A stretch of 64,000 nucleotides of DNA, taken from positions 1 through 64,000 of the forward strand of contig JAIWWG010000055.1 in NCBI GenBank assembly GCA_025435555.1, read 5' to 3'. How positions within the stretch are numbered: position 1 is the first letter of the stretch; the number at the start of each line of letters is the position of its first letter. A program made the position numbers and the translations under genes. Below, piece after piece: positions 13,252 through 42,819 of the stretch. Origin of the DNA: Chytriomyces cf. hyalinus JEL632. Taxonomy: Eukaryota > Chytridiomycota > Chytridiomycetes > Chytridiales > Chytriomycetaceae. Below the pieces are notes generated by a model. It did no database searches. It was not told the DNA's origin and worked only from the letters and a program-made list of their open reading frames with translations.

Positions 13252-14290
13252 TTACAATGCTCCCTGTGCGTATTCGGTTACCAATCTGTCGAACCCGGGT
13301 CTTGTCTTCTCATTCTGAGATGCACGCAGATATAAATCCGCGCATGTTCCCCAACCGACTTTTTTACACTTTGACACCGTCCCTCTTGATCCCAAGTAAG
13401 ACACAACATTCCCAGGCTGTGCTTTCCTAATAAAGTCCATGAACCCTCGCCATTGTGTTGGGTTCATAGAACCCAGAGAATTGTTTGAAAGTACGAGGAC
13501 GGCACCCTTTGCACCCAACACGGCTTCAATGTCAGGATATTTAGCCATCAGCTCATCTGCACGCAGACAAAAGCTGCCAAAGGAAAAGAGACGGACTGCA
13601 GATTCTTTTCCAATGTTATCAGATAAACGATCCAAGACTGGAAGGAGAGATTCGGCGCGTGAACAAAAGCTGTTTGTCGAAAGCAATGCCACTGCAGATT
13701 TCGTTCCAAACTTTTCCGAGAGAATATTCAACACAGGCAGCATCTCAGTTTGAGCACAAAAGCTGTTCATTGAAAGCAATGCCACTGCGTTTTCCGTCCC
13801 GATCGCTTTTGAGAGAGAGAGTCCAAAACAGGAAGCAGAGTTTCAGCCCGAGCAGAAAAACTGTCTGAAGCAAGCAGCCTAACTGCAGATTCCATCCAAG
13901 TTTCTCTGATAGCGTGTCCAAAACTGGGAGAAGAGCATCCGCATGAGCATAAAAGCTGTCTTTCGAAAGCAACATGACTGCCGATTTTGTCCCGAACTTG
14001 TCAGAGAGAGAGTACAAAACTGGCACCAGAGACTCAGCTCGAGCGCAAAAACTGTTGCTTGTAAGCAATCGAACAGCATCCTTCGCCCCAATTTTGTTTT
14101 TGAGAAGCAGTGCATCGGTCCGACAAATGAAGCTTTTTGTCGAAAGCAACCTGTCCGCCGACTTGTCACCTGCAAGTTTTACAATTGTTTTTCGAATGTC
14201 GCGAGGACTTTCAGAGGCAGCAGAACGTCCGGTTGCTGTTCCAAGATGGCGCTGTGGGGATGATGACTTGATATCTCGACTGAAGACCAT
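13252..14290 (-). pseudogene. 32-residue helical-repeat protein, frameshifted copy
   Basis: Reading from the ATG at 14290, about eight repeats of a 32-residue unit are seen, pattern G-x-x-x-A-V-x-L-L-S-X-X-S-F-C-x-R-A-E-x-L-L-P-V-L-D-x-L-S-x-K-h. The pair X-X reads TK, SN, KD, SD, MN, TN, FG, NN in order. The frame is lost near 13897 (one base missing after L-G) and changes again near 13815 in a CT-rich run. The last part then runs to the stop at 13252 with a non-repeat C-terminus (W-G-T-C-A-D-L-Y). I found no intron that would repair the shifts. Two short helices around a variable loop suggest an alpha-solenoid like TALE or mTERF repeats. Partner copy: 35324-36358. Confidence 0.75.
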
Positions 14291-14510
14291 GCCGAGCGAA
14301 GCATTTCCACAACATATTTTATGTTGCTTTTATTTAAATTTTTGTTAAACATTTTCGGACACCTTCGCTTCTCCTCAGCTTCGAGTGTCTGACGTTCTCC
14401 CACTCGACAAAATATCATCACCAAAAGATGAACAGTGCATTTTTGCAAACAAACAAATCTTTGTCTTCGAACCATGCGAGAAAAGACAAGGGAGCGCGGC
14501 TTACAGGCCT

Positions 14511-14762
14511 TCAATACCTCTTGCCAGACTCAACACATCCAGAGAAATCACGGCTCACAGAACACACGAGCCCATAGTTACCACAGTTGTCGCTGTACTG
14601 CCAGTACGCAGTGGGTCCAGCTGGGCCACCGACGTAAATCTTGTTGTTTCCCTCGCCGCACGCGCACTTTCCCTCGTGGCCAACACAGGATGCACCTTGC
14701 TCGTAACCAGCGTAGCTAGCGACACGCATGCGGTTAGATTTGTGCTGAGGGGCTACAGCCAA
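14511..14762 (-). pseudogene. fragment of a secreted Cys-rich gene
   Basis: This frame matches only the last domain of the Cys-rich proteins at 32992-33843 and 42160-42819 (R-V-A-S-Y-A-G-Y, G-A-S-C-V-G, A-C-G-E-G-N-N-K-I-Y-V, ending C-V-E-S-G-K-R-Y). It lacks a start codon, a signal peptide and the first domain. A Cys conserved in both full genes is Gly here (Y-V-G-G-P-A). It lies next to the frameshifted repeat gene, as the other Cys-rich relics do on the right side of the region. Confidence 0.8.
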
Positions 14763-14888
14763 GGGTTTCTTGTTGCAAACTGGAACTTACTCTCTGACAA
14801 AATGAAATGTGGCGGCGATGTCTTCAGGAATCTTCTCGACGCGTCATTGGTGCTTTTTCGACATAAAGAGACGTGGCACTTGCAATTC

Positions 14889-14889
<1 letters not shown>

Positions 14890-14923
<34 letters not shown>
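14890..14923 (+). repeat. 34-base poly(A) tract
   Basis: An uninterrupted run of A lies 17 bp upstream of the start of the nucleotidyltransferase-like gene. Several genes in the window have shorter A-rich leaders before the ATG (897, 20643, 36804). The length may be subject to assembly error. Confidence 0.9.
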
Positions 14924-32991: not shown

Positions 32992-33843
32992 ATGCAATAC
33001 CCAATCATCCTCTCGGCCTTTGTCGTCCTCGCCTCAGCCAGCAACTACCAAGGGCAAACTGCCTGCGTCAAGGGAACCAGCTGTAACGCGAACCAGCAAA
33101 ACAACAACTTGAATTTCTGCTGCGACGGAACCATGATGCTTACCTGTGGCCCTGCCGGCCCAACTGCTCACTGGCAGAAGAGCTCCGACTGCAAGTCCAT
33201 TGGCCAGTGCTTTGCGGATGCCAACTGGGCTGGATGCACCGGTGACAGCTCGTACGAGAACAACTACAACGACGCTCCTCCCATTTACTACGAGCCAGCA
33301 CCGGCATACAAGCACTCCAACGCCCCACCCAAGGACTACGGCGGCCAATCTGCCTGTGTCCAGGGATCAAGCTGTAACGCGAACCAAAAGAACAACAACC
33401 TCAACTTTTGCTGCGACGGCACCAAGATGCTCACTTGTGGACCTGCCGGCCCAACTGCTCACTGGCAGTACAGCTCTGACTGCAAGTCCGTTGGTCAATG
33501 CTTTGCGGATGCCAGCTGGGCTGGATGCACTGGCTCTGGCTCAGACTCTTCCTACTACTCACCACCAGCTCAGCAGTACAACCAGCCATCCCCACCCCCA
33601 CAACAATACAAGCAATCCAGCCGCATCCGTGTTGCCAACTATGCTGGTTTCGAAGAAGGTGCTTCATGTGTTGGCCAAGAGGGAAAGTACTCTTGCGGTG
33701 AGGGAAACAACAAGATTTACGTCTGTGGCCCAGCTGGCCCAACCGCGCACTGGCAGTACAGCGACAACTGCGGCAAGTACGGACTCATGTGCTCAGTGAG
33801 CAGCGCGTTCTCTGGATGTGTTGAGTCTGGCAAGTACTACTAG
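32992..33843 (+). CDS. secreted Cys-rich repeat protein, three domains
   Basis: Single exon, 283 residues. A signal peptide (M-Q-Y-P-I-I-L-S-A-F-V-V-L-A-S-A) is followed by two near-identical domains of about 55 residues: A-C-V-x-G-x-S-C-N-A-N-Q, N-F-C-C-D-G-T, L-T-C-G-P-A-G-P-T-A-H-W-Q, D-C-K-S, G-Q-C-F-A-D-A. Then come Pro/Tyr/Gln-rich linkers and a third related domain ending C-V-E-S-G-K-Y-Y. The Cys pattern is reminiscent of small chitin-binding modules such as CBM19, but the match is not secure. Likely extracellular or wall-associated. A transposon ends only about 45 bp upstream of the start codon. Confidence 0.8.
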   Translation: MQYPIILSAFVVLASASNYQGQTACVKGTSCNANQQNNNLNFCCDGTMMLTCGPAGPTAHWQKSSDCKSIGQCFADANWAGCTGDSSYENNYNDAPPIYYEPAPAYKHSNAPPKDYGGQSACVQGSSCNANQKNNNLNFCCDGTKMLTCGPAGPTAHWQYSSDCKSVGQCFADASWAGCTGSGSDSSYYSPPAQQYNQPSPPPQQYKQSSRIRVANYAGFEEGASCVGQEGKYSCGEGNNKIYVCGPAGPTAHWQYSDNCGKYGLMCSVSSAFSGCVESGKYY

Positions 33844-35300: not shown

Positions 35301-35323
35301 TCAAACAACCGTGAAATCGTGAC

Positions 35324-36358
35324 ATGGACATCATTACTTGCGGAGAATTCGAAGGTGTCCGAAAGTGTGAAACTGACGCCGCAGTCGCATTACTTTCGAA
35401 AGACGGGTTTTGTACTCGTGCAGATGCCCTTCTACCTGTTTTGGACATGTTGTCAGAGAAACTGGGGACAAAATTGGCTGTCACCCTGCTTTCGAAAGGC
35501 AAATTTTGTGCTCGTGCAGAGTCTCTGGTTCCGGTTGTCAACGCACTTTTTGAAAAGCTCGGGACGGATTCTGCAGTTAGGCTGCTTTCTTCGAGCAGTT
35601 TTTATGCGCATTTGGATGCTGTTCTTCCAGTCCGATATGCCTTCAGAGAAGATTGGGACAAAAAATGCAGTCGCGTTGCTTTCGACGGACAGTTTTTGTG
35701 CGCGCGCAGATTCTCTGCTTCCAGTTTTGGACATTCTTTCAGAGAAATTGGGGATGGAATCGGCAATTGCGCTGCTTTCAACTTTGCTGATCATGAGGCT
35801 CTACTTCCTATTGTCAGCACACTCTCCAAGAAAGTGGGGACGAAATCTGCTGGCAAGCAGCTTTTGTCAACCGGATTTTGTGCTCACTTTAAGACCCTTG
35901 TGCCAATATTGGACTCGTTGTCAAAAGCAGTTGGGGCGAAATCTGCAGTGGCATTGCTTTCGAGAGATAGCTTTTGTTCTCGTGCTGAATCTCTGCTTCC
36001 AGTCTTGGATCGTTTATCAGATCAACTAGGAATTGAATCTGCTGTCCGTCTACTATCCTGTGACGGATTTTGTGTGCATGTTGATGAGTTGATGGATAAA
36101 TAAAAACGCGCTATTCCAGTTCTTTCAATTCCTTACCTGGTTTCGATGGACGCATCGCAATGGCGATAGTTTATGGAGTTTATTCAAACTGCGCAGCCTG
36201 GGGATACGTCGCCGTATTTGAAATCATACAAGACTTTAACTTGTAAAAAGATTGGTTGGGGAACATGCGCGGATTTGTATCGGCATGCATCTCAGCATGA
36301 GATGACAACAGCCGGGCTTGAGAGATTGGTGGATGAAAACGAGCAGAAAACATTATAA
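35324..36358 (+). pseudogene. 32-residue helical-repeat protein, frameshifted copy
   Basis: Same repeat family as 13252-14290. From the ATG at 35324 three repeats are in frame. The frame then shifts near 35630 for about two repeats, and returns near 35770, where part of a unit is deleted. Three more follow, ending at a TAA near 36101. The remaining C-terminal domain (ending W-G-T-C-A-D-L-Y-R-H-A-S, then E-Q-K-T-L) is open again at 36173-36358. Readable variable pairs after 'LLS' include KD, KG, SS, TD, RD and CD. The lesions are different from those of the left copy, so the two decayed independently. Confidence 0.75.
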
Positions 36359-39189: not shown

Positions 39190-39391
39190 TTGGAATTAAA
39201 TAAAATAGAATGAGACTTGGCGGTGGCTGAGTGTACCTGTTTTCGTGCAGGGTCTCTTCTTTTTTTTTTGACCCGCCGAAATCAAAAATCAAAAGAATCC
39301 GTCGAACGCGTTCGTAATTCTCAAAACACACTTCTCGCGTTTCTTTTTCGATCGTGGCGGTTGATTCAGGCGCAAGTTGGACGCGAGATTG

Positions 39392-40870
39392 ATGGACTCG
39401 AAAGACATGCTCGGAATGAACTGCGTTCACCCTTGTTTGAAAGAGCAGAAGGATATGCCAGAAGGGTCTACATCTCATTCTCAGGTGTGTTTACATCTGT
39501 ATATGTTTATGTTAACTGTTGCTGAGTTCTTCTTTCAGCGTCACACCAACGCATCAGAAAACACAGCAGCAGTGAATGCAAGACCGCTGCCTCACGCCTT
39601 GACGCAACCCGAGTCACATGCCATAACTGATCCAAACATACACCTCCCACCGTTGAATGCGCGCAGCTGTCCAAACACGCTCGGAATGAGCGCACGAACC
39701 GAATCGCACTTCTTCAGCCACAAACCAGGCCACATCCAACCCATCCATCACAACAAAGTGAACGAATTCGGGCTCACGCTGGAGCAAATGAATGACTTGA
39801 TTTCAAGTTTCCAAGAAATGAGAGAAATTCCAGAGCCGGATATTTTTGAATACTTTGTGAACGATATTTCGGATCCCGACGCTGACCTGCAGAACGAACT
39901 GGACCCAGCACCAAAAGAGCATGCGAAAACAAATTCGGAAGAGACGAATACTTCAACAGCAGTCAAACAAGCCGGACTCCCCTTCCCAACACCCATGCCC
40001 ACGCGTGGAACTACTCCAGCCGCAAGGTTCAAGACCCTCCCAATCCTGCAAAATATGAGCCCGTTCCATACGGATCAAGTCACGCTTTATGCTGCTCAGC
40101 ATCCAGTGGTGGATCTGGCTCCAGCGAAAAACGATTCCTTTGTTAGCCGCTCCTTATTGGAGGGAAAGTGCATGTCTTCTTCGCCAAAGCAAATGATTCC
40201 GATTTCACCATCAGAAGTGTTGAAACATATTTCTACATACACCCTGCTTAATTCTACTGCAGCAGCAGCAGAAGTAAACTTAAATGGATTCACAAAGATT
40301 ACTCCAACGGCACAACCTCAATCCCACCAACAATCATTCCATTCCAGTTTAAATCCCATCCCTCAATCCAGCCCCACGCCGTCCCCATGCAACATCTCAG
40401 AACCATTCCGCCCGAAAAAGCAGTTGCCTCTAAATTTCGCAAATCCCGTTAAACTCGAAACGTCCGAAACATCGCCCGCCCAATCCTCTTCATCATCAGT
40501 CACATCAGCCTCAGCGATGCAATCTGCGGACACAGAAAGACGCAGCATCAGGCGCGGGAAGCAATGTCGCAACGCGTGTGTGCATTGTAAACGGAGCAAC
40601 AAGAAATGCGAAGATGTTCGACCGTGTTTGCGATGCGTGCAAACGGGGATGGAAGATTCGTGCGAAGATGCGCCGAGAAAGATGCGGCACGGGCAGCGGA
40701 GAAGAGGGCCGTATCGGCGGAAGGAGGAGGTTATTGCGTTTGATTACTCATCGATTGTGGAAAGAAAGTTACCCGAGAGACTGAGCAGTGTGTCGAGCAC
40801 TGGGTCTCCCATCGTGAAGCCTCAGAGGGAGGTTCATCATTTCTTGCCACGGATGGGATACTTCGAGTGA
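39392..40870 (+). CDS. Zn2Cys6-type transcription regulator
   Basis: About 492 codons from the ATG at 39392; a possible 54-nt in-frame intron (39485-39538, GTGTGT to TTTCAG) would shorten it by 18 residues. Near the C-terminus lies one Zn2Cys6 cluster, spacing C-x2-C-x6-C-x5-C-x2-C-x8-C, containing A-C-V-H-C-K-R-S-N-K-K-C and followed by a basic patch with R-R-R-G-P-Y-R-R-K. The long N-terminal part is Ser/Pro-rich and disordered. Clusters of the K-R-S-x-K-K-C type occur in fungal regulators with the cluster at the C-terminal end. Target genes unknown; nuclear location expected. Confidence 0.8.
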   Translation: MDSKDMLGMNCVHPCLKEQKDMPEGSTSHSQVCLHLYMFMLTVAEFFFQRHTNASENTAAVNARPLPHALTQPESHAITDPNIHLPPLNARSCPNTLGMSARTESHFFSHKPGHIQPIHHNKVNEFGLTLEQMNDLISSFQEMREIPEPDIFEYFVNDISDPDADLQNELDPAPKEHAKTNSEETNTSTAVKQAGLPFPTPMPTRGTTPAARFKTLPILQNMSPFHTDQVTLYAAQHPVVDLAPAKNDSFVSRSLLEGKCMSSSPKQMIPISPSEVLKHISTYTLLNSTAAAAEVNLNGFTKITPTAQPQSHQQSFHSSLNPIPQSSPTPSPCNISEPFRPKKQLPLNFANPVKLETSETSPAQSSSSSVTSASAMQSADTERRSIRRGKQCRNACVHCKRSNKKCEDVRPCLRCVQTGMEDSCEDAPRKMRHGQRRRGPYRRKEEVIAFDYSSIVERKLPERLSSVSSTGSPIVKPQREVHHFLPRMGYFE

Positions 40871-42159: not shown

Positions 42160-42819
42160 TTAGTGGTAACTCTTGCCAGACTCAACACACCCAGAGAATG
42201 CGCTGCTCACAGAACACACAAGTCCATACTTGCCGCAGTTGTCGCTGTACTGCCAGTGCGCAGTGGGTCCAGCTGGTCCACAAACATAAATCTTGTTGTT
42301 TCCCTCGCCGCACGCGTATTGTCCTTGGTACCCCACACAGGAGGCACCTTCCTCATACCCGGCGTAGTTTGATACACGAATGCGGCTGGATTGCTTGTAT
42401 TGCTGAGGGGGTGAGGGTGCCTGGTAGTACTCCTGTGGAGGCGGTGGAGCCTGATAATATTGCTGAGAAGGAGGAGCCGGCTTGTATGGCGTGTCATACG
42501 AAGATCCGCTGTCGTAAGAAGAACCGCCGCCAGTGCATCCGGCCCAACTAGCATCTGCGAAGCATTGACCAACAGCGCTGCAGTCGGAGCTAAACTGCCA
42601 ATGGGCAGTGGGACCGGCCGGACCACAAGTAAGCATTTTGGTTCCGTCACAACAGAAGTTGAGGTTGTTGTTCTTTTGGTTTGGGTTGCAGGAAGAGCCT
42701 TTCACGCATGGTGTTTGGGCAGCGTAGTTTGAAGGGGAGTTGTTGGACTGTTGGAAGTAGTTGCTTGGAGCAGCAGAAGCGATGGAGGCCAAGGCAGAGA
42801 AGAGAGCTGTGTACTGCAT
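42160..42819 (-). CDS. secreted Cys-rich repeat protein, two domains
   Basis: Single exon, 219 residues. A signal peptide (M-Q-Y-T-A-L-F-S-A-L-A-S-I-A-S-A) is followed by one copy of the N-terminal domain (P-C-V-K-G-S-S-C-N-P-N-Q, N-F-C-C-D-G-T-K-M, C-G-P-A-G-P-T-A-H-W-Q, G-Q-C-F-A-D-A). A Pro/Tyr/Gln-rich linker and the C-terminal domain (S-R-I-R-V-S-N-Y-A-G-Y, ending C-V-E-S-G-K-S-Y-H) follow. It differs from the gene at 32992 mainly by having one instead of two N-terminal domains. Likely extracellular; function unknown. Confidence 0.8.
   Translation of the reverse strand: MQYTALFSALASIASAAPSNYFQQSNNSPSNYAAQTPCVKGSSCNPNQKNNNLNFCCDGTKMLTCGPAGPTAHWQFSSDCSAVGQCFADASWAGCTGGGSSYDSGSSYDTPYKPAPPSQQYYQAPPPPQEYYQAPSPPQQYKQSSRIRVSNYAGYEEGASCVGYQGQYACGEGNNKIYVCGPAGPTAHWQYSDNCGKYGLVCSVSSAFSGCVESGKSYH

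What the first reader, a model, noticed from the sequence alone, without database searches (positions are those of the whole stretch)
13252..14290. A 32-residue helical repeat with a variable pair after 'LLS', resembling TALE and mTERF units
Sequence: eight units with near-invariant A-V-x-L-L-S, then two variable residues (TK, SN, KD, SD, MN, TN, FG, NN), then S-F-C-x-R-A-E-x-L-L-P-V-L. Established: TALE repeats (33-35 residues) have V-V-A-I-A-S, two base-specifying residues, then G-G, and L-L-P-V-L later in the unit; mTERF repeats have a similar L-x-P-x-h-x-x-L spacing. Inference: the family may be an eukaryotic solenoid with a variable, possibly nucleic-acid-facing loop. Position 13 uses only N, D, G, S or K, as in TALEs, but those residues also cap helices in any loop, so convergence is possible. 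Both window copies are frameshifted, so an active member must be elsewhere.
Basis: partly seen in the sequence, partly recalled or inferred. Interest (0 to 1): 0.8.

Follow-up and report, generated by a model that had tools for sequence, protein, structure and literature searches.

The report
TALE-shaped repeat family in a chytrid
A chytrid fungus carries about thirty copies, a few of them intact, of a gene for a probably mitochondrial coiled repeat protein that is predicted to be shaped like known DNA-reading proteins; the copies in this window are dead ones.

The parts
13252..13842 (-). Copy 1, C-terminal part: last units and the conserved C-terminal region, in one open frame
   Evidence: tblastn of P0002 at 13803-13264, 77% identity
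13770..14000 (-). Copy 1, middle part in a third reading frame, with one full unit (pair SD)
13745..14311 (-). Copy 1, N-terminal part: end of the presequence-like stretch, N-terminal unit and first units; most of the presequence-like stretch is missing compared with intact members
   Evidence: comparison with alignment A1
14538..14774 (-). Fragment of a linked cysteine-rich, probably secreted gene directly upstream of copy 1, same orientation
   Evidence: 73% identity to P0004 residues 100-178
35315..36346 (+). Copy 2 of the repeat family, frameshifted
32992..33816 (+). Linked cysteine-rich, probably secreted gene upstream of copy 2, same orientation

Best explanation
The window holds two dead copies of a chytrid gene family that encodes probably mitochondrion-imported alpha-solenoids with a TALE/mTERF-like superhelix. 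Each intact protein has a presequence-like N terminus, a degenerate first unit, 6-11 further 32-residue three-helix units, and a conserved helical C-terminal cap. The likely mechanism is that the superhelix wraps a nucleic acid in the mitochondrion (mtDNA or a mitochondrial transcript). The stripe made by positions 8, 12, 13 and neighbours would be the contact face and the number of units would set the target length. The copies are made and lost quickly, as in some organelle trans-acting factor families. Shown: repeat, family, open copies, constraint. Predicted: fold. Inferred: import, nucleic-acid binding, contact face.
Confidence: 0.5

Rival explanations
1. A modular one-unit-one-base reader: the pair at positions 12-13 (above all D, G or N at 13) specifies the base, as in TALEs, by convergence or remote descent.
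For: Pair at the helix 1-helix 2 turn; 120 of 141 units have D, G or N at 13 and 39 pair types occur; the pair changes somewhat faster than other variable surface positions (ratio 1.37, 0.99-1.82); TALE chains are the best structural matches.
Against: Positions 3, 8, 27, 28, 31, 32 have higher entropy than either pair position; D, G and N codons are linked by single transitions and favour tight turns (recalled); no GG at 14-15; position 13 is counted as helical in the model.
Confidence: 0.15
2. A protein-binding mitochondrial alpha-solenoid (assembly factor or scaffold) that only shares the solenoid shape.
For: Variable positions are spread over helix 1, the turn and helix 3; near-neutral charge; an mTERF protein, MTERF4, forms a complex with the protein NSUN4 (title of 4fp9).
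Against: The best structural matches are DNA-binding solenoids, though that list holds only Foldseek's own top candidates.
Confidence: 0.25
3. A rapidly duplicating family whose spread reflects segmental duplication of a block with the cysteine-rich neighbour, with no conserved molecular role of the variable surface.
For: 21 of 29 copies look broken by my reading; the neighbour lies directly upstream in the same orientation of 6 of the 29 copies.
Against: Constraint on open copies (pN/pS about 0.4) and a C-terminal region shared with distant homologues.
Confidence: 0.1

Closest known systems
TALE / BurrH DNA-binding repeat proteins (PDB 3v6p, 4hpz, 4cj9)
   Different: 32 residues and three helices per unit, S/G-F instead of G-G after the pair, many other variable positions, no accepted profile match, fungal gene with presequence-like N terminus
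mTERF / pTERF proteins (PDB 3n7q, 3mva; PMC11417379, PMC4705650)
   Same: About 32-33-residue three-helix unit; hydrophobic residues at 7-residue spacing (F15, L22, L29 as against 11, 18, 25); probable mitochondrial location
   Different: No match of family proteins to PF02536; no proline where mTERF has it; alike tandem units in many gene copies; lower structural Z (8.8 at best)
[quoted passage not shown]
   Same: Helix-loop-helix repeats with variable positions 12-13; one reported from a fungal species
   Different: The paper reports TALE-type pairs, the TALE code and predicted type III signals; the units here lack TALE-type pairs for the most part (T, S, K or R at 12), and secretion signals and binding were not tested
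Restorer-of-fertility-like PPR genes (PMC5080715, abstract and outline seen)
   Same: Related in sequence and position, without introns in the Brassica locus, organelle-directed solenoids (analogy of evolutionary mode)
   Different: Different repeat; the abstract reports hallmarks of positive selection, which I did not find here; no target or arms race shown

Membership tests
TALE | Unit of 33-35 residues (as in the finding) forming two helices (PMC12482156 passage) | tested here: not met
   32 residues and three helices in 6 of 6 regular units of the model
TALE | Two conserved glycines after the variable pair | tested here: not met
   Position 14 S 52, G 17, R 2; position 15 F 71 of 71 units
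TALE | Variability concentrated in positions 12-13 | tested here: not met
   Ranks 7 and 8 of 32 in entropy over 141 units
TALE | Match to TAL effector profile models above cut-off | tested here: not met
   PF03377 against the genome: two hits below cut-off, neither on a family locus; NF041308 in 1 of 17 proteins, 14.3 bits against cut-off 1000
TALE | TALE-like superhelix | tested here: met
TALE | One unit reads one base | not testable with these tools
   needs binding assays
mTERF | Match to PF02536 | tested here: not met
   No family protein matches it; genome-wide, one place on C216 passes the cut-off (24 against 23.1 bits) but is a low-complexity coding tandem repeat outside the family
mTERF | About 33-residue motif of three short helices | tested here: met
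   definition from PMC4705650 passage
mTERF | Proline at 8, hydrophobic at 11, 18, 25 | tested here: not met
   Heptad spacing present (F15, L22, L29) but the proline position falls on variable position 12 (definition from PMC11417379 passage)
mTERF | Organellar location | tested here: inconclusive
   Composition of 14 N termini only
mTERF | mTERF fold by structure match | tested here: inconclusive
PPR / TPR / HEAT / ARM solenoids | Profile or structure match | tested here: inconclusive
   No Pfam match above cut-off; absence from the structure list excludes nothing (note)

The most novel reading that the evidence does not exclude
Fungi, reported to lack mTERF, have their own mitochondrial, tandemly modular nucleic-acid reader with TALE-like architecture, in which the residues at 8, 12 and 13 of each 32-residue unit specify the target and the family turns over rapidly in conflict with mitochondrial genes or elements; distant relatives of unknown organisms (P0016, P0018, P0019, P0007) use the same kind of unit with other N-terminal domains.
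Probability: 0.15. Interest if true: 0.9.

Novelty: new variant of a known kind. Interest (0 to 1): 0.6.

Why it matters
A eukaryotic tandem array of alike units with a TALE-like predicted superhelix and a probable mitochondrial address would give a compact module for testing nucleic-acid reading in organelles. It would also bear on the statement that mTERF genes are apparently absent in fungi (PMC3981765, passage seen). Several open paralogues with different unit numbers and pairs make the idea directly testable.

Tried and rejected
Pfam on window ORFs, family members and homologues: hits below the curated cut-offs only (best for family members DUF7260 at 0.0007, C12orf66_like at 0.0012, XylR_N at 0.0022 in 5 of 9). 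PDB by sequence, single and profile: nothing credible. NCBIfam: AvrBs3 in 1 of 17 proteins (P0003, E 0.0068; about 3.4 units against 3.4 units by my arithmetic); I give it no weight because the same search gives an acyl carrier protein model at 6.3e-6 for L034 and the other 16 proteins show no AvrBs3. PHROGs: unnamed families down to 3.2e-6 for L034 and 2.2e-5 for L031 (phrog_28076), a weak late-activator hit (0.034) for L031, nothing consistent. The PF02536 hit on C216 passes the cut-off but is a low-complexity coding tandem repeat. Relatives in IMG/VR and in bacterial and archaeal genomes: none confirmed; these scans need an exact pattern match. BFVD structures: none at E 0.001 or better. 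P0016 model: too uncertain to use. Telomere test of subtelomeric location: the 30 listed TTAGGG matches lie on C94, C111, C193 and C209, none on a family contig, so not testable. In the VIA list for P0001 I saw no PPR, TPR, HEAT or ARM entries; this excludes nothing. A guess that P0007/P0019 begin with a uracil-DNA-glycosylase-like domain was dropped: no profile support. Decoy arrays made were not used. The homologue searches were capped (searches scored only the candidates sharing most words), so absence from other fungi is not shown. Literature: in the rows listed (only open-licence full texts are held, and most lists were cut) I saw no paper on this chytrid family. PMC13126933 seen as abstract and outline; PMC5472282 as abstract, outline and passages; PMC12482156 as passages.

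Full report
What is there. The finding is correct about the sequence. On the minus strand of 13252-14311 lie eight 32-residue units in three reading frames, with DNA spacing mostly near 96 bp. Two proteins returned by the homologue search lie on contigs of 91280 and 321562 bases of Chytriomyces cf. hyalinus JEL632; the own genome has contigs C14 and C169 of exactly these lengths, so I take the window to be from that chytrid (Chytridiomycota; its saprotrophic habit is recalled).

Family. Searching the own genome with the window ORF gave 111 matches, 28 clusters, 29 copies by my reading. Five are open from ATG to the conserved end. Three are near-intact or uncertain: L042 stops near the end, L045 has no ATG at its start, and the divergent C169 copy is two overlapping frames that may be exons. 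I read the other 21, among them both window copies and the P0001 locus (one TGA in its N-terminal part), as broken or fragments. A second query, the first frame of the divergent C169 copy, gave 72 matches on the same contigs except C215 (loci not compared one by one). Homologues: 19 distinct proteins over three capped searches: 4 from JEL632, 9 from C. hyalinus, 1 from C. confervae, 5 without organism names. Two of the unnamed (P0016, P0018) share both the unit and the C-terminal region; P0007, P0015 and P0019 have units of about 35-36 residues by my count and a shared N-terminal domain of unknown kind.

Anatomy. Intact proteins start with an Arg-rich, acid-poor stretch ending near RHLATSTT (alignment A1; composition of 14 N termini), which I read as a mitochondrial presequence; no predictor was available. 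Then come a degenerate first unit, 32-residue units, and about 100 residues of helical C terminus that look like degenerate units. One search found 71 units in eight genes (7-12 per gene).

Variable pair. The pair sits at the first turn and is mostly polar or charged (position 12: T, S, K, R, A, N; position 13: D, G, N in 120 of 141 units), so probably exposed. It is not unique: over 141 distinct units from all frames, positions 28, 27, 31, 3, 8 and 32 have higher entropy. The units were picked by 18 key positions that exclude 12 and 13, which makes the key positions look conserved; the other positions can be compared fairly. Over 48 disjoint nearest pairs, positions 12+13 change at 0.90 of the synonymous rate (0.67-1.15), other variable surface positions at 0.66 (0.54-0.78), ratio 1.37 (0.99-1.82). 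This set includes units from broken copies. In the eight genes with open arrays the overall ratio is 0.41, with 12 at 0.79 and 13 at 0.66 (1540 pairs of 56 core units, first and last units dropped); the 17 closest pairs gave 1.25 and 2.24, too few and not independent. I see no firm evidence of positive selection.

Membership. Family proteins fail the sequence-defining features of TALE and mTERF tested here and meet, on a predicted model, the fold of the first and the three-helix unit of the second. I therefore call it a new variant of the TALE/mTERF kind of solenoid, working perhaps like them, and not a member of either.

Mechanism. Presequence-like N terminus, solenoid and family turnover suggest an organelle nucleic-acid-binding factor. 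The analogy with restorer PPRs (PMC5080715, abstract and outline seen) is one of evolutionary mode and is incomplete: those genes show hallmarks of positive selection and these do not. Nucleic-acid binding is at about one in two in my judgement, a base code at about 0.15.

Neighbour. A cysteine-rich, probably secreted gene family (P0004 N-terminal part; 28 matches in the genome, about 17 places by my grouping) lies directly upstream in the same orientation of six of the 29 copies: C197:44 kb, C197:60 kb, C197:213 kb, C14:24 kb and both window copies (distances about 0.2-1.5 kb). Other members of that family lie elsewhere, some of them far from any repeat gene (for example C23 and C196). In C. 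hyalinus P0004 the two are fused in one gene model, so the arrangement is not limited to JEL632. I take it as a co-duplicated block; a functional link is untested.

Noticed in passing
window 14538-14774 (-), 32992-33816 (+), 42190-42738 (-): Cysteine-rich, probably secreted gene family (CBM_1-like hit below cut-off) that lies directly upstream of six of 29 copies of the repeat gene in the same orientation.
   Followed up: partly
L046 (G000:C169:43500-53000); P0003, P0005, P0006: NCBI models fuse a methyltransferase-like domain to the divergent repeat gene; the repeat gene seems to have its own ATG and Arg-rich N terminus.
   Followed up: partly
P0007, P0015, P0019: Unnamed proteins with 35-36-residue relatives of the unit share an N-terminal domain without any profile match; P0019 ends in a lysine-rich tail.
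   Followed up: partly
G000:C216:166405-167145: Coding tandem repeat of low complexity that triggers an mTERF profile hit just over the cut-off.
   Followed up: yes
G000:C94:22236-22862: Telomere-type TTAGGG repeats at this place; distance to a contig end was not checked.
   Followed up: no
window 14890-14923: Run of 34 A upstream of copy 1.
   Followed up: no
window 39377-40870 (+): ORF with a fungal Zn(2)-Cys(6) cluster match just below the cut-off near its C-terminal end.
   Followed up: no
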